Source of the DNA: a virus
Virus record (IMG/VR): IMGVR_UViG_3300042350_000492
Location: 1-20,717 of that record
Direction: 5' to 3' (one strand)
Length of the DNA: 20,717 nucleotides
The stretch's first letter is position 1. Every line of letters starts with the position of its first letter. The notes beneath the pieces were generated by a model, which saw only the letters and a program-made list of their open reading frames with translations, did no database searches and was not told the origin of the DNA. Positions 2,092 to 7,862 of the stretch are shown here, one piece after another. Both the position numbers and the translations under genes were made by a program.

Positions 2092-4914
2092 TTATGTTGG
2101 TCTTGATATGTTAAGACCCATTTTATCTTCCATAATATCAAACATTGCTTTACCTAATTTAAGCTTATCTAATGCTATACTTACATTTACAGGTGTTGAG
2201 GTTCTTGAACCGCCACCAGTACCTACATTATTAATTAGAGTAGTTAGTAAATTGTTTGTTTCATTCTTAGTAGTATTTACAACATTTCTATATCTTTCGG
2301 CTTGATCAACAAGATTGGATACATTTGTTATATTTTCTGGTGTCAATTTGATTGATGCTTCTCCAAGATCGGATAAGCTATTCAAAGCAGAAGATAAGGC
2401 ATTGCCAGAATCAGAATTTAATTCATTTATTTTCTCAATTATTGCGCCAATTATCTCAACAAGAGGCTCTAATCTACTTGCAATTCCATCTGGTATATTT
2501 GATATAGCATTTATAAATTCAACAAATGCTGGAACAGAAGCAGAGATTGTTCCCATTATGTTACTTAATGCTGTCAAAGATGTAACCAATATACCAATAC
2601 CAATTAAGCCAATAGGATTAGCAACAACAGAAATCATAGAAAGCATGGCAGAACTTATTAAGTATAGTGAAGCACCTAACATTAGTAAGTTTGATCCTTG
2701 AGAAGCAGCTTTAGCCATTGAATCAAATATCATTGATATACCTAAACCTACAAGTGCTATACCTCCACCAAACATTAGGAAAGATGCTCCAACCATTAGT
2801 AATGCTGCACCTATAGCTAGTAAGACAGGTATTGCTGGTGTTGCAGTAAGAACTAGATACAATGCTCCAACAAACACAATTAATGCAGCACTAAACACTA
2901 GTAATTGAGGTCCATTTAGTTTAGCAAGAGAATCAGCTAATGCAGCCATACCATAGAACAAAGCAAATGCAAAAGCTGCCATACCAGCCATAGCAACACC
3001 TAAAGCATACAACTGTTTAGAAGATACTTCTGAAGCTATACCAATAGCTACTATGGAAGCTGCCATTGTAAAACCAATAACATACAACATTGGAGAGCCA
3101 CTCATATGGTATAATGAAAATATAAGTAAAAATGCTCCTGCCATGAGATTTAAACGGTTGCTAGCAAACAATGCAGAAAATCCAACAGACATATTTGATG
3201 CAGCAAATATACTTTGAAATACTGCTGTTATTCTACTAATATTTCCTAATATCATTGTTGTAGTAATCAAAAATCCTAGTGTTGGTAATAATGCTCCACC
3301 AGTAAATTCATCTATTTTTAATATTATATTTAGAAAAAATGTTAGAATCAGTATTAATGGTGCTAATCCTTTTGCCAAACCAAAAACAGCTTGCTTTAAA
3401 GAATCCATAAGTGTGCTAGCTTCAGCTAATGCTTCTGCCATAGTAGCAGCATTAGCTTCTGACGCTGCTGCTTCTGCTTGAAATTTATCTAATTCAGTTA
3501 ATGACATACCAAATATTTTATTTGCTTGGGACATATCATTTATCCCAGCAGCAGAGGCAATAGTCATTTTTTCATACTTGCTTAAACTATCAAAAGATCT
3601 ACCAGACGCTTGAACAGCTTCAGCCATTAATCTTATTCTTTCAGATTCACTTGCGTTTAAAAGTTGAGAAGAGTTTAACAAACCCCCACCAAGAACTGCA
3701 TTTAGTTTACCAGCAGTTTCAGCAGCACCTTCAAATGTATCCATTTTCTCAGCTATCGAAACAAGAGTACCAATTTCAAGACCAGTTGCTTTTGCAGTAG
3801 CTGCTAGTTCTTTAAAAACTTGAACACCTTTGGCACCATAAACAGATAGTTTTGCTGATACTTGTTCAAACTGAGTTCCCAACTCTGCTACACCCATTTT
3901 TAAATCATCAGCTAATTCTACTACACCAACCATAGTATCTGATGCTTGTTCCGCTGTCATATTAAAGCCAGTAGTTAAATTAGATAAAAGTTTTGTACTT
4001 GATTCAGCAGAAAAACCTAGCTTATCTAATTGTGCTGTAGTTCTAGATAATTCTCCTTGTGTTATGACACTTAATTCTGAAAAAGCAACATAATTTTTAT
4101 TTAAACCTGCAACAGCACTTTGAGCATTTTCTAAACCAACACCAGCAGCGTTCATTGCAGCAGAAAGATTAAGAAAATTCTGTACTGCTCCACCACCAGA
4201 CTTATTTAGTTCCGCAAAAGCAGATGCCATTTCGGCAGTAACTGTGACCAATAACTCGGTCATTTTTACTCCAAAATTACCTTTCAATAATTCTTCTGGT
4301 TTTTCAAATGCATCTTTAATACCGTTTTCAAATGCATTAAGTCCTTCTTCCCAATCTTTATCACCTAATGTTAATAATTTACCAACAAATGTATCTTTAT
4401 AACCTTGTCCTAAACCAATTAAACTCATAAAAGAATCAGCATCGTCTTTCATGCTTTTTCTCATATTCATTTTTTCTTTTTCTAAATCTAATAATTTTTC
4501 TGCACTATTAATTTCTTTTAGTTTATTTTTTACTGCGTCTTCATCAAAGATAGCATTTTTTAAAAGTTGTTCATATTCTAATTGCAAAACTCTTAATCTA
4601 TTTTGAAGATTTAATATTTCTTTTTCACTTAAAGAATTTAATACTTCTTGTGCTTTAACACCATCTTTATCTAATTCTTTAAATCTTTCTTTAATTGATT
4701 TAATATCACTAGCAGTTAATAATATTTGTTTTAAATTATCTATTTGAGTTTCAAGATTTCCATTTTCTTCATCAGTTAGTGTTTCTGACCTAGCTAATTC
4801 TTTGTTAATTAACTCAATAAGTCTTAGTATATTTTGCTGTTCAATACCAGTTTTTTTTGCAGCTTCTGTAAGTAATCTTTGTTTATCTGCTTCAAGCTCA
4901 GCTCTAGTTGCCAT
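2092..4914 (-). CDS. Tail tape measure protein (T4 gp29-like)
   Basis: At 940 aa this is the longest protein here. It sets tail length by spanning the tube lumen during assembly and is released or channel-forming on injection. Residues 1-170 are strongly helical and charged, with a coiled-coil pattern (Leu/Ile heptads between K/E). Residues 215-510 are Ala-rich and amphipathic. From about 515 to 790 there is a long series of hydrophobic segments (for example PLILILTFFLNIILK, then Gly/Ala-rich membrane-like helices), a hallmark of tape measures. The C-terminus is hydrophilic and may bind the baseplate hub. AAGGAG lies directly after the upstream stop, 9 nt before ATG. The location after the tubes and the gp26/gp51-like pair fits the usual tube, chaperone, tape-measure order. 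The family call is secure from architecture and context; equivalence to gp29 is by position. Confidence 0.85.
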   Translation of the reverse strand: MATRAELEADKQRLLTEAAKKTGIEQQNILRLIELINKELARSETLTDEENGNLETQIDNLKQILLTASDIKSIKERFKELDKDGVKAQEVLNSLSEKEILNLQNRLRVLQLEYEQLLKNAIFDEDAVKNKLKEINSAEKLLDLEKEKMNMRKSMKDDADSFMSLIGLGQGYKDTFVGKLLTLGDKDWEEGLNAFENGIKDAFEKPEELLKGNFGVKMTELLVTVTAEMASAFAELNKSGGGAVQNFLNLSAAMNAAGVGLENAQSAVAGLNKNYVAFSELSVITQGELSRTTAQLDKLGFSAESSTKLLSNLTTGFNMTAEQASDTMVGVVELADDLKMGVAELGTQFEQVSAKLSVYGAKGVQVFKELAATAKATGLEIGTLVSIAEKMDTFEGAAETAGKLNAVLGGGLLNSSQLLNASESERIRLMAEAVQASGRSFDSLSKYEKMTIASAAGINDMSQANKIFGMSLTELDKFQAEAAASEANAATMAEALAEASTLMDSLKQAVFGLAKGLAPLILILTFFLNIILKIDEFTGGALLPTLGFLITTTMILGNISRITAVFQSIFAASNMSVGFSALFASNRLNLMAGAFLLIFSLYHMSGSPMLYVIGFTMAASIVAIGIASEVSSKQLYALGVAMAGMAAFAFALFYGMAALADSLAKLNGPQLLVFSAALIVFVGALYLVLTATPAIPVLLAIGAALLMVGASFLMFGGGIALVGLGISMIFDSMAKAASQGSNLLMLGASLYLISSAMLSMISVVANPIGLIGIGILVTSLTALSNIMGTISASVPAFVEFINAISNIPDGIASRLEPLVEIIGAIIEKINELNSDSGNALSSALNSLSDLGEASIKLTPENITNVSNLVDQAERYRNVVNTTKNETNNLLTTLINNVGTGGGSRTSTPVNVSIALDKLKLGKAMFDIMEDKMGLNISRPT

Positions 4915-4928
4915 CTAAATATTCTCCT

Positions 4929-5252
4929 TTATTTAAACGGCCACTTGATGCCCGTGTCTCTCTCAAATTGATTAATTGAAGCTTGAAGTTCATATTTTGT
5001 TTTATATGTTCTTGGGTCATTCAAACCATGCTTAACATAGGAATCAAAATATTTTTTCTCACCAGCTAAAGCTCTAGCAAATGATTCAACTTGGCTTGGA
5101 TCACCTGTTATTGATATTGGTGGTAAAAATACATCTTTACCAAACATACGTCTTAATATTAGCTTTACAGCAGTTCCAAACATTTCAAAAAAAGATTCAT
5201 TTATTTCTTTACCTTTTGATAAATCAATAAATATTGGTGTTAAATCATTCAT
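4929..5252 (-). CDS. Small conserved-looking tail protein preceding the tape measure, unknown function
   Basis: This 107-aa protein has no signal peptide or membrane helix. It begins MNDLTPIFIDLSKGKEINES, followed by an amphipathic helix (FEMFGTAVKLILRRMFG). Residues 44-66 resemble a short beta-alpha segment with GDPSQVESFARALAGEKKYFDSY, and it ends with FERDTGIKWPFK. I recognise this pattern from uncharacterised small proteins next to tape measure genes in T4-like marine phages, but I cannot name a T4 counterpart. It opens its own transcription unit: a terminator (5281-5316) and a CTATTTAT box (5268-5275) lie just upstream. The ribosome site is weak (AGGT about 9-10 nt before ATG). The stop abuts the AAGGAG that serves the tape measure gene, so the two are coupled. 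A tail-assembly role is likely, but this is inference from position. Confidence 0.75.
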   Translation of the reverse strand: MNDLTPIFIDLSKGKEINESFFEMFGTAVKLILRRMFGKDVFLPPISITGDPSQVESFARALAGEKKYFDSYVKHGLNDPRTYKTKYELQASINQFERDTGIKWPFK

Positions 5253-5280: not shown

Positions 5281-5316
5281 AAACAAAAAGAACGCTAGTC
5301 CTTTAAAACTAGCGTT
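5281..5316 (-). terminator. Intrinsic terminator after the gp51-like ORF (bidirectional shape)
   Basis: A perfect 9-bp stem, AACGCTAGT (5291-5299) with ACTAGCGTT (5308-5316), surrounds an 8-nt loop. On the minus strand it is followed by CTTTTTGTTTT. The stop codon of the gp51-like ORF (5315-5317) lies in the stem. On the plus strand the hairpin is also followed by a T-run, so it could stop transcription in both directions. Confidence 0.9.
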
Positions 5317-5578
5317 ACTTTTTCATGGACCTTTCCATTTCTTCTTTTTCTTTTTCAAACTGGGAAGCTAAGCGTTTAACAAACCATCTCCTTAATCCTA
5401 TTGGAAGATTATACATTTCTATAAAAGACCAACCTCCGTGGTATTTTAAAAGAAACATCTCTTCATATACAGCCTGTTGATATTTATCGTTTAGGCCAAA
5501 AAAAGTCAGTTGTAAACGGAACCTCCAGATCCGTTGAGTAGTCGCATGATAGACAATTAAAATTTGATTTAAGCTCAA
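5315..5578 (-). CDS. gp51-like tail/baseplate assembly ORF, probably expressed by frameshift from the gp26-like gene
   Basis: The frame is 87 codons from a TTG at 5578, but the first 27 codons lie inside the conserved end of the gp26-like gene, look like non-coding shadow, and have no ribosome site before the TTG. Only from about GLNDKYQQ onward does it look like a protein: an aromatic helix (YEEMFLLKYHGGWSFIEMYN), then LPIGLRRWFVKRL and a charged helical tail rich in E and K. The LP-x-x-x-R-R-W-F pattern is what I expect of small gp51-like assembly factors and of the T half of G/GT tail chaperones. The first in-frame ATGs are at the EEMF and IEMY segments and would give products of about 47 and 35 aa. 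The most economical reading is a 345-aa gp26-gp51 fusion made by a +1 (or -2) shift at 5498-5504. A terminator follows directly. Confidence 0.7.
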   Translation of the reverse strand: MSLNQILIVYHATTQRIWRFRLQLTFFGLNDKYQQAVYEEMFLLKYHGGWSFIEMYNLPIGLRRWFVKRLASQFEKEKEEMERSMKK

Positions 5579-6353
5579 GTCTTGGATTTATAATATTCAG
5601 TCTTTCTTTGAATAGTTTATAATCTTTTATTGGCATTAACTCAATAGCTTTTTCTATAAGCTTTGCATCTGATACACCACTAATACTAACTGTAATAGAT
5701 CTTAAAACATCTAATAGGTATGTATCTTTACCACCCTTTTGCTGAGTTAGTTGTTTTTGTGTCATTAATTGTTCTTCTCTACCTGTCATAAGTTTTACAA
5801 CCCATTCAAATTTTGATACAGGTAAACTAAAGCAGAACATATTAACCCCTACTCTTTTAACGCCTTCTGGTAAATTATTTGGGTCATTAAAGTAAGTATG
5901 AGCGCATTCGTTAAGATCAAAAGTATATTCTTGATTTAATGAGCAATTTGGACAAGTAACTTTTGTAGTATAATCTTGTCCATAACCAGATCTTCTTGCA
6001 GCAACCATTATTGCATTTTTATCGCAAGAAAGTAAATCTTCTGGTCTTATTGATTTATTAACTAACAAATCTTGTATTAACCTATCGATAACAATTCCTT
6101 TTTTTATTAAGGATTTTGATGAAAGTGTATCTTCATCTTTAGCTGTCATTAACTTTATTTCTACATCTTCTTTGTTATGCAATGGGTGATGTTCATCATA
6201 AAATACACCCTTTGAAGGTAGGTCAACTAACTCAGTGGGAACAACAAAATTTAATTGATTTATTGATTGTTGAAAATTTTGTGTTGCTGCTGCGCTGTCC
6301 GAACCAGATTCTATAGGGTCTGCAACACCAACCCTATCTTCATTATTTCTCAT
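5484..6353 (-). CDS. gp26-like T4 baseplate/tail assembly protein with two CxxC pairs
   Basis: The protein is 289 aa. Its recognisable core starts at about residue 40 (LVDLPSKGVFYDEHHPL, then VEIKLMTAKDEDTLSSKSL and KKGIVIDRLIQDLLVNK), which matches the T4 gp26-type family (Pfam 'T4 bacteriophage base plate protein') as I know it. CPNC (C134, C137) and CLSC (C267, C270) could form one split zinc site. T4 gp26 is needed for hub assembly. Residues 1-38 are polar, Ser/Ala/Gln-rich and poorly ordered. ATG at 6353 has CGGAG 6 nt upstream, and the preceding stop is 10 nt away. Lying between the tube genes and the tape measure and overlapped at its 3' end by the gp51-like frame, it holds the position of the tail-assembly chaperone G of other tailed phages. 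A dual role of this kind is inference. Confidence 0.8.
   Translation of the reverse strand: MRNNEDRVGVADPIESGSDSAAATQNFQQSINQLNFVVPTELVDLPSKGVFYDEHHPLHNKEDVEIKLMTAKDEDTLSSKSLIKKGIVIDRLIQDLLVNKSIRPEDLLSCDKNAIMVAARRSGYGQDYTTKVTCPNCSLNQEYTFDLNECAHTYFNDPNNLPEGVKRVGVNMFCFSLPVSKFEWVVKLMTGREEQLMTQKQLTQQKGGKDTYLLDVLRSITVSISGVSDAKLIEKAIELMPIKDYKLFKERLNIINPRLELKSNFNCLSCDYSTDLEVPFTTDFFWPKR
5498..5526 (-). other. Candidate programmed frameshift site (GGAGG plus seven-T slippery run)
   Basis: The coding strand reads GAC TTT TTT TGG in the gp26-like frame, a run of seven T at 5504-5498. The gp51-like frame is +1 relative to it (ACT TTT TTT GGC). tRNA-Phe can re-pair after a +1 or a -2 slip on this run, and the following zero-frame codon is TGG. 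An internal Shine-Dalgarno-like GGAGG (5526-5522) lies 17 nt upstream. A weak 5-bp hairpin (GGCCT with AGGCT) can form directly downstream. The zero-frame stop is 12 nt past the run. Confidence 0.55.
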
Positions 6354-6363
6354 TTATACTCCG

Positions 6364-7224
6364 TTATGATAATTTCAATTGTGCTCTATCAAATACATAA
6401 TGTTCACAATTTGTTGGTTTAAATTTTAAACTTATTTCTTGTGTCTCATCAGATGAATAATCAGAAGAACCAAAATTTACAGATGTTAAGAATGGTTTCT
6501 GTATATTCCAAAGTGCTTTTTTACCTTCTAATCTATTGATTATTGTTCTATCAATATCATCAAAAAGATCAGCATTATTTCCATAATTTGAAGCACCAGC
6601 ATACTCGCCGCCAAATGGAGATGGAGATGGTATTTGTTTTGAAAAGTCTAAATCTTTGTAACTTAACTGACCACTTCCATAACCAGAACTTGTAAGACTT
6701 CTAACAAAGCCAAGATTTGCTTGCTGTCCTATAGGCTCATATTCCCAAATTTTAATAAGTTTACAAAATGGTGCATAATTTATTTTAGAAGTTATAAACC
6801 TAGTTGGATGTACGCCTAATGCAGCAATAATATTGTTTACATTCTCTTCTAAATCGCCTTTTGTTCCGTTACCTAAATCTATTAATTTAAGATCTATTTC
6901 TTGCCAAGCGTTAGCTAATCCTTCAAAATCAATTTTAGGAGTTAGTACAAAACCATTACCACCAGGAGCGAAGGATAAACCACCTTGCTCCAAGTCGTTA
7001 ATGGTAGATAATTGTAATGAAGGTCTGGTTACTGACTTTACATAGAAAGCAAAGTCAGATTGCTCAAAAAATCTACACCAAGGTTCTGAACTGTCAAAAG
7101 CATATCCGTGTTGCGTAACGCCACTCTCATCCACTGCGGATAAATGACCAGCAAATACACCAACAAATCTTACTAAGAATCTACTTTTTCTTTTTGGCTC
7201 TACGATAGAATCAGTAAAGAACAT
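6364..7224 (-). CDS. Second tail tube protein (gp19-like paralogue)
   Basis: The protein is 286 aa from ATG at 7224. A frame one codon longer would start with TTG, but TGATG coupling to the upstream stop favours the ATG. It begins FFTDSIVEPKRKSRFLVRFVG, parallel to the neighbour's VDPKRKFRFTIDFGG. It also shares the FYVKSVTRPSLQLS strand and the C-terminal LTSVNFGSSDYSSDETQEISLKFK, matching the neighbour's IKDVSFGSLEYGADDLLEIQLKFRYD. This is the typical gp19/Hcp-like tube fold with a larger middle insertion (about residues 95-235). T4 gp19 is 163 aa. The likely role is a specialised tube ring, for example at the baseplate or neck end, or a tube component with an exposed loop. The stop is followed 10 nt later by the gp26-like start. 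Confidence 0.8.
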   Translation of the reverse strand: MFFTDSIVEPKRKSRFLVRFVGVFAGHLSAVDESGVTQHGYAFDSSEPWCRFFEQSDFAFYVKSVTRPSLQLSTINDLEQGGLSFAPGGNGFVLTPKIDFEGLANAWQEIDLKLIDLGNGTKGDLEENVNNIIAALGVHPTRFITSKINYAPFCKLIKIWEYEPIGQQANLGFVRSLTSSGYGSGQLSYKDLDFSKQIPSPSPFGGEYAGASNYGNNADLFDDIDRTIINRLEGKKALWNIQKPFLTSVNFGSSDYSSDETQEISLKFKPTNCEHYVFDRAQLKLS

Positions 7225-7862
7225 CAACCACCAGTGTTAAATTTATTGTAATTTCTATCTGAATCTGTTGTTTGGCCTATTGTTTGATCTGCGTTGTTTA
7301 TTGAAAGCTCAGCCCAATCATATCTAAATTTTAATTGGATCTCTAGCAAATCATCTGCACCATATTCTAGTGAACCAAATGATACATCTTTTATCCAAGC
7401 ATTCTTTAAAATCCAAGTTTCAAGTGCTCTACCATCATCATCAATTTGATTTATTTTCATAGAACTAAATGGTGTTGAGCTTTTAAATTTTGATGGTAAT
7501 CTTACATTACCACCCTCAGCACCTTGAATAGACTTTTGTACATTTTGTGGTAGTTGGTAGCCAGAATATAATAAAATTTTATATATGTTTTCAGATAAAT
7601 CTGGTAATCCTGTATTACCACCAGTATTTGCTCCACGGCCTCTTGGATCAACTAAAGAAACGTTTATCTCTTTCCACTCAACTTTGCCTGGAAAATAAAA
7701 TGTATGTGATAGAAAATTGTGTTTTGCCTCAGCAATACTAAATCCAGGTTTATCAACTTTTTTTACAACCCATTGTGGCAAGTAGTAATTTGTACCTCCA
7801 AAATCAATTGTAAATCTAAATTTTCTTTTTGGATCTACTTCTCCGCTGTCCCAGAATGCCAT
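7224..7862 (-). CDS. Tail tube protein (T4 gp19-like)
   Basis: This 212-aa protein follows the sheath gene and matches the tail tube family: the VDPKRKFRFTIDFGG start, WVVKKVDKPGFSI, the FPGKVEWKEINVSLVDP strand, and the C-terminal IKDVSFGSLEYGADDLLEIQLKFRYDWAEL. Tube subunits stack as hexamers inside the sheath and form the DNA channel. T4 gp19 is 163 aa. The extra length is mostly a Gly/Asn-rich loop at about 75-130 and a short polar C-terminal extension. AAGGAG sits 10 nt before ATG, and a CTATTTAT box lies 24 nt upstream, so tube expression can be uncoupled from sheath expression. The stop and the next gene's ATG overlap as TGATG. The tandem partner is a diverged paralogue. Confidence 0.9.
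   Translation of the reverse strand: MAFWDSGEVDPKRKFRFTIDFGGTNYYLPQWVVKKVDKPGFSIAEAKHNFLSHTFYFPGKVEWKEINVSLVDPRGRGANTGGNTGLPDLSENIYKILLYSGYQLPQNVQKSIQGAEGGNVRLPSKFKSSTPFSSMKINQIDDDGRALETWILKNAWIKDVSFGSLEYGADDLLEIQLKFRYDWAELSINNADQTIGQTTDSDRNYNKFNTGG

What the first reader, a model, noticed from the sequence alone, without database searches (positions are those of the whole stretch)
5315..5578. gp26-like/gp51-like pair looks like a programmed-frameshift tail chaperone in a T4-type phage
Seen: the gp51-like frame overlaps the gp26-like gene by 95 nt and its only long start is a TTG without a ribosome site. The overlap reads as shadow until a seven-T run (5504-5498), after which it looks like a real protein. 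The frames differ by +1 (equally -2), tRNA-Phe can re-pair on the run, and a GGAGG lies 17 nt upstream. Known: lambda-type G/GT chaperones lie between tube and tape measure and are made by frameshifting; phage Mu uses -2. Inference: a 345-aa fusion (285 + 60 residues) is made, and gp26/gp51 of T4-like phages are the chaperone equivalent of G/GT.
Basis: partly seen in the sequence, partly recalled or inferred. Interest (0 to 1): 0.78.

Follow-up and report, generated by a model that had tools for sequence, protein, structure and literature searches.

The report
Tail chaperone made by +1 frameshifting
In this virus of bacteria, and in a large group of mostly uncultured relatives, ribosomes very probably slip forward by one base near the end of one gene to make a longer second form of a tail-building helper protein; the helper pair was already known in T4-type phages, but this forward slip differs from the backward slip that their cyanobacterial relatives appear to use.

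Summary
The gp26-like gene (5484-6353, -) ends ...GAC TTT TTT TGG CCT AAA CGA TAA; the gp51-like frame lies +1, overlaps by 95 nt and has no credible start. The T-run alone is not unusual in this window; its conservation is. In 251 related loci the second frame is +1 and enters at TTT TTT/CTT/CTA TGG CCT or a close variant. The codon before the site never ends in T (0/177 unique junctions, about 93 expected; at least 41 codon changes on the tree). Cyanophage homologues (76 unique) are the mirror image: second frame -1, always T TTT TTC. Variants TTTCTTTGG, TTTCTATGG and AACTTTCTA argue against RNA-polymerase slippage, the last two also against -2. T4 gp51 is a gp26-like domain fused to this gp51 domain. 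So the pair is the T4-type tail-assembly chaperone, short and long form. That idea is not new: Vladimirov, Gautam and Davidson (2022; cited in PMC10885494, PMC12846349) identified the T4-like chaperone genes. What appears new is the +1 variant, its large clade, and the opposite nucleotide selection in two lineages. Frameshifting itself is inferred, not measured.

The parts
5484..6353 (-). gp26-like gene, 289 aa: short form of the chaperone
   Evidence: PF12322 T4_baseplate above cut-off, phrog_150 baseplate hub; AlphaFold model pLDDT 87 matches gp26 proteins of other phages in BFVD
5496..5504 (-). slip site TTT TTT TGG, proposed +1 shift on a Phe codon (T-run 5504-5498)
   Evidence: TTT YNN TGG or close variants in 251 related loci with gp51 always in +1; never preceded by T
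5318..5497 (-). gp51-like domain, 60 codons read after the shift (GLNDKYQQ...MERSMKK), stop 5317-5315
   Evidence: Third-position variation in this frame; three-helix model pLDDT 89; homologous to the C-terminus of T4 gp51 through the family profile
5315..6353 (-). proposed fusion, 345 aa: long form of the chaperone
   Evidence: Reading +1 at the slip site gives one open frame; the cyanophage equivalent fusion aligns with T4 gp51 through the junction
5498..5578 (-). upstream part of the gp51 frame back to TTG 5578: chance opening (shadow), not a gene start
   Evidence: No SD at the TTG; start codons not conserved, stops in this frame in many relatives
5522..5526 (-). GGAGG, 17 nt before the T-run; not conserved, role doubtful
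   Evidence: Sequence; rare in relatives
6364..7862 (-). two tail-tube-like genes upstream (7224-7862 and 6364-7227)
   Evidence: phrog_4542 tail tube matches for both
2092..4914 (-). probable tape measure protein, 940 aa
   Evidence: Inferred from position and length only; no family match, no significant BLASTP match to the immuto tape measure

Best explanation
The region encodes the tail-assembly chaperone of a T4-superfamily phage. Most ribosomes finish gp26 (289 aa, short form, the equivalent of lambda gpG). A minority, with tRNA-Phe in the P site on TTT TTT T, slip forward one base, read GGC CTA AAC ... and make a 345-aa long form (equivalent of lambda gpGT) that carries a three-helix gp51 domain. 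By analogy with lambda, the gp26 part would bind the tape measure and the gp51 part would recruit the tail tube, and both would leave the finished tail. Shown here: the site, the frame relation, the lack of a conserved start for the second ORF, the coding character of the second frame, and the homology with T4 gp26 and gp51. Inferred: that slippage occurs, its rate, which of the two Phe codons slips, and the chaperone action.
For: Second frame +1 in 251 loci, site conserved, also in distant RM378, SP-15, GXN1 and LR756508. Codon before the site never ends in T in 177 unique junctions (about 93 expected) despite at least 41 codon changes on the tree; the -1 cyanophage lineage shows the opposite (76/76 T, always TTT TTC). 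No start with an SD-like sequence in 155/179 unique junctions; 41/172 closed upstream with no start codon at all before helix 1. Third-position variation in the gp51 frame downstream. T4 gp51 aligns with the gp26-gp51 fusion through the junction (Prob 98.7, E 3e-16) and with T4 gp26 (Prob 99.3). T4 gp26 and gp51 are listed as hub assembly chaperones (PMC3004832). The genes lie between tail tube and probable tape measure.
Against: No direct evidence of slippage or of a fusion product. Phe-Phe-Trp is conserved as protein, so part of the T-run is forced by amino acids. No conserved downstream RNA structure or SD-like stimulator in the +1 clade, so what raises slippage above background is unknown. 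Direct profile similarity of the +1 fusion to T4 gp51 is weak (Prob 22). The PDB fold match to the HK97 chaperone is not significant. The HMM used for the frame call was seeded from the expected frames.
Confidence: 0.9

Rival explanations
1. gp51 is a free-standing small protein, made by internal initiation or by restart of ribosomes that stop at the end of gp26.
For: Some distant relatives with gp51 in the -1 phase do have an ATG at the junction: Cygsa01 TAATG, VAP7 and D531, LR756511 TAATG; Moby and the Schizotequatroviruses have both an ATG at the stop and T TTT TTC. 131/179 unique +1 junctions have some ATG/GTG/TTG upstream in the frame.
Against: In the +1 clade start positions are not conserved and only 24/179 have a start with an SD-like sequence; 41/172 have none at all. 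It does not explain why the base before the site is never T, nor why the post-shift frame is coding from the site onward. In T4 the gp51 domain is fused to a gp26-like domain.
Confidence: 0.06
2. -2 ribosomal frameshift (as in phage Mu), giving one extra Phe.
For: On TTTTTTTGG itself both tRNAs could re-pair after -2.
Against: TTT CTA TGG, AAC TTT CTA and TTC TTT CGT in relatives allow re-pairing after +1 but not after -2.
Confidence: 0.04
3. RNA polymerase slippage on the T-run produces a changed mRNA.
For: A homopolymer run sits at the frame change.
Against: Seven T is short for polymerase slippage (general knowledge), and many relatives keep the frame relation with the run broken: TTTCTTTGG (35 loci), TTTCTATGG (4).
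Confidence: 0.02
4. Sequencing or assembly error in a homopolymer: really one in-frame gene.
For: Homopolymers are error-prone.
Against: The same frame break recurs in 251 loci from many independent metagenomes and in cultured immuto, Mel-JY01, SP-15 and RM378, also where the run is interrupted.
Confidence: 0.01

Closest known systems
T4-like tail assembly chaperones, T4 gp26 (short) and gp51 (long); Vladimirov, Gautam and Davidson, Virology 2022;566:9-15 (cited in PMC10885494 and PMC12846349; full text not held)
   Same: Same protein family and same short/long logic; frameshifting in some T4-like groups is part of that work as cited in PMC12846349 (poly-T -1 signals) and, from memory, in its abstract.
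   Different: T4 uses two separate genes on opposite strands. The citing papers mention -1 signals only; the +1 shift of this clade was not found in any paper held.
Lambda gpG/gpGT and its relatives (frameshifted tail assembly chaperones)
   Same: Short form plus frameshift-extended long form, gene between tail tube and tape measure; works like it.
   Different: Lambda shifts -1; no sequence relation to lambda G/T was tested or claimed; the only structural hint (HK97 chaperone 2ob9, E 1.7) is not significant.
Cyanophage (Kyanoviridae) gp26/gp51
   Same: Homologous pair with the shift at the same Phe-Phe codons near the gp26 stop.
   Different: -1 phase on T TTT TTC, T always before it, with predicted downstream RNA structure.
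+1 frameshifting in bacteria and phages: prfB (RF2), Listeria phage PSA, haloarchaeal HSTV-2
   Same: Forward slip with P-site re-pairing; HSTV-2 is a myovirus whose chaperone very likely uses +1 (PMC5009743).
   Different: Here Phe codons before TGG, not a stop codon or Pro codon, and no conserved SD-like element as in prfB.
Phage Mu gp41/41' (-2)
   Same: Myovirus chaperone with the second ORF in the same relative frame (+1 = -2); from general knowledge.
   Different: Site variants here fit +1 and not -2.

Membership tests
T4 gp26 family (PF12322 / phrog_150) | Sequence match above curated cut-off | tested here: met
   30 bits against cut-off 24.5; 33 of 48 family members match at E 0.001
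T4 gp26 family (PF12322 / phrog_150) | Same fold | tested here: met
   Model pLDDT 87; BFVD matches SP-15 baseplate hub E 2e-17 and Aeromonas phage 25 gp26 E 5e-5
T4 gp51 C-terminal domain | Homology of the post-shift domain with the end of T4 gp51 | tested here: met
   Family profile vs T4 gp51 C-terminal part Prob 86, E 5e-6; structure resembles Gp51 of P-HM1, TM 0.72/0.81, E 0.17, so the structural match alone is not significant
Frameshifted tail assembly chaperone (G/GT type) | Short ORF ending in a slip site, second ORF in another frame without its own start | tested here: met
Frameshifted tail assembly chaperone (G/GT type) | Position between tail tube and tape measure | tested here: inconclusive
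   Tail tube genes identified; the tape measure is inferred from position and length only
Frameshifted tail assembly chaperone (G/GT type) | Fusion product made, binds tape measure, absent from virion | not testable with these tools
   Needs proteomics and binding assays
Frameshifted tail assembly chaperone (G/GT type) | Fold of a solved tail assembly chaperone | tested here: inconclusive
   2ob9 (HK97) has the highest probability of the listed PDB hits, 0.23, but E is 1.7
-1 programmed frameshift (X XXY YYZ) | Second ORF in the -1 frame with a T TTT TTY heptamer | tested here: not met
   Frame is +1; the codon before the site never ends in T
DUF6760 (PF20546) | Match above curated cut-off | tested here: not met
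   19.4 bits against 27; 9 of 47 family members match at E 0.01

The most novel reading that the evidence does not exclude
Homologous T4-superfamily chaperone genes have settled on opposite frameshift directions at the same Phe-Phe codons: one lineage is selected for T TTT TTC (-1), the other for TTT TTT T or TTT C with no T before it (+1, with -1 suppressed). This would be a natural experiment in changing frameshift direction, undescribed for the +1 clade.
Probability: 0.7. Interest if true: 0.6.

Novelty: new variant of a known kind. Interest (0 to 1): 0.5.

Why it matters
Annotation of these phages loses or truncates the second half of a tail protein: immuto lists a 36-aa and S-RIM8 a 45-aa fragment. 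The +1 clade, with few cultured members (12 phage records matched by the window's gp26), offers a defined site for bench tests of +1 slipping on Phe codons. Comparison with cyanophages shows selection against the wrong slip direction at single-base resolution, and with T4 it shows several solutions to one need: +1, -1, and gene duplication.

Tried and rejected
T-run as evidence by itself: rejected, seven-T runs are no commoner than chance. GGAGG as a conserved stimulator: rejected for the clade. Downstream RNA structure in the +1 clade: none found. One consensus hairpin for all cyanophages: RNAalifold gave none; a named 5-pair hairpin is paired in 60% of cells, above shuffles and slid controls, so at best a subset has it. 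DUF6760 as the family of the gp51 domain: below cut-off; control genomes gave no lead. Alignment A1 was too diverse as a search query. One DNA query was uninformative. Full text of Vladimirov et al. is not held. Apparent exception L067 is a mis-assigned gp26 end; its site is ACA TTT TTT TGG CCT. The log-probabilities ignore relatedness and were not used as P values.

Full report
What is there. On the minus strand the window carries a T4-type tail module. The gp26-like gene 5484-6353 ends GAC TTT TTT TGG CCT AAA CGA TAA, and a second open frame, +1 relative to gp26, runs to 5315. The stated overlap (95 nt), T-run (5504-5498), GGAGG 17 nt upstream, TTG start without ribosome site and 285 + 60 aa fusion are all correct. 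gp26 passes the Pfam T4_baseplate cut-off and matches the PHROG baseplate hub family. Two tail-tube-like genes lie upstream, and a 940-aa ORF, probably the tape measure, lies downstream.

Is it more than chance. Seven-T runs are common in this AT-rich window (18, with 33 expected from shuffles), so the run alone is nothing. The test is comparative. Relatives were collected from IMG/VR with peptide patterns that do not include the site and from phage records. A gp51-domain HMM was then run over all three frames at each gp26 end. It was seeded from the expected frame of each group, so the frame result is not fully independent, but no locus hit better in another frame: 251 loci in the +1 frame and 81 loci, nearly all cyanophage-type, in the -1 frame. 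Some contigs were fetched by more than one query, so unique junctions are used for the statistics below.

The site. In the +1 group it reads TTT TTT TGG CCT (193 loci), TTT CTT TGG CCT (35), TTT CTA TGG CCT (4), TTT TTT TAC/TAT CCT (6), CTT TTT TGG (6) and a few single forms. Distant phages agree: RM378 TCC TTT TTT TGG, SP-15 GAA TTT TTT CAC, GXN1 TTC TTT CGT, LR756508 AAC TTT CTA, all with gp51 in the +1 frame. In the -1 group 80 of 81 loci have T TTT TTC with one codon between it and the stop; the exception, Cygsa01, has a TAATG overlap.

Selection on bases, not only on residues. Phe-Phe-Trp is conserved as protein, so part of the T-run is forced by amino acids. The base before the site is not. 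In 177 unique +1 junctions the preceding codon (Asp, Ser, Thr, Asn, Gly and others) never ends in T, against about 93 expected from codon usage, while the five codons before it end in T in 22-50% of tips; on the gp26 tree this codon changed at least 41 times. In 76 unique -1 junctions it always ends in T (about 50 expected), and the second Phe codon is always TTC. So each lineage keeps what its slip direction needs, and the +1 lineage avoids the -1 heptamer T TTT TTT. The log-probabilities printed ignore relatedness and are not used as P values.

Direction and mechanism. TTT CTA TGG, AAC TTT CTA and TTC TTT CGT let tRNA-Phe re-pair on TTC after +1 but give no good re-pairing after -2 (reasoning on the sequences). 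The broken runs also argue against RNA polymerase slippage. Which of the two codons is in the P site is not settled; in the window the product is the same. The -1 group has predicted downstream structure (mean z -1.71, control -0.21), the +1 group does not (-0.28, control -0.30). The -1 group has an SD-like GAGG-type element about 9-11 nt upstream in most members, the +1 group only in part; since the encoded residues explain much of this in the -1 group, it is weak evidence.

No usable start for gp51. In the +1 group 155 of 179 unique junctions have no ATG/GTG/TTG with an SD-like sequence, and 41 of 172 are closed upstream and have no start codon at all before the first helix, which the model places just after the shift. 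Annotators pick internal fragments instead: 36 aa in immuto, 45 aa in S-RIM8.

Link to T4. In T4 genes 26 and 51 lie on opposite strands. hhalign aligns T4 gp51 with the cyanophage -1 fusion over 237 columns through the junction (Prob 98.7, E 3e-16) and with T4 gp26 (Prob 99.3). T4 gp51 is therefore a gp26-like domain plus a gp51 domain, the long form as a separate gene. The +1 fusions link to this through the cyanophage fusions (Prob 82 over 280 columns) and through PF12322, and only weakly to T4 gp51 directly (Prob 22).

Other strategies seen. Some -1-phase relatives have an ATG at the gp26 stop: LR756511, Cygsa01, VAP7 and D531, and, together with T TTT TTC, Moby and the Schizotequatroviruses. 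Restart is thus a real alternative in other branches, though not in the window's own.

What is known. Leiman et al. [quoted passage not shown] Atkins et al. 2016 note that G/GT frameshifting is widespread except in T4, and a very likely +1 case in HSTV-2 (PMC5009743). Vladimirov et al. 2022 identified the T4-like chaperone genes: the PRFect paper says some T4-like phages carry a short gene and a longer fusion gene, and PMC12846349 refers to poly-T -1 signals in T4-like TAC-N genes. From memory, their abstract also says frameshifting is conserved in several T4-like groups. Their full text could not be read, so whether a +1 group was noticed is unknown; no held paper found here describes one.

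Structure. gp26 folds with pLDDT 87 and matches gp26 proteins in the viral library. In the PDB nothing is significant; among the hits listed the one with the highest probability is the HK97 tail assembly chaperone 2ob9 (prob 0.23, E 1.7), a hint only.

Verdict. Observation confirmed, interpretation supported, idea largely published. The +1 variant, its large and mostly uncultured clade, and the mirror-image selection are the new part.

Noticed in passing
window 5291-5316 (-): A terminator-like stem of 11 pairs followed by T-rich sequence lies directly after the gp51 stop, before the 107-aa ORF and the probable tape measure, so the latter may be transcribed separately.
   Followed up: partly
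window 4929-5252 (-): A 107-aa ORF without any family match sits between the gp51 frame and the probable tape measure; Melnitz-1 also has a 110-aa ORF at this place.
   Followed up: no
window 6364-7862 (-): Two different tail-tube-like genes (212 and 287 aa), both matching phrog_4542, lie head to tail.
   Followed up: no
L021 3232-3369; L003 4884-4994: Annotated gp51 of S-RIM8 (45 aa) and the 36-aa CDS of immuto begin inside the conserved domain and miss its first helix.
   Followed up: yes
A5 columns 18-31 (cyanophage loci L268-L347): A small hairpin such as GGTCCATATGGACC lies a few bases after T TTT TTC in part of the cyanophages, with some paired changes; a possible -1 stimulator.
   Followed up: partly
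L359 2325; L022 3199: Ackermannviridae phages selz and Kevin have gp51 in the -1 phase with no ATG at the junction and only ATTTTC or GTTTTC before the stop; how gp51 is expressed there is unclear.
   Followed up: no
L006 4792; L007 4810: XacN1 and Atu_ph07 (jumbo phages) also end gp26 with T TTT TTT and T TTT TTC and have a -1 frame downstream, but the gp51 HMM did not recognise it.
   Followed up: partly
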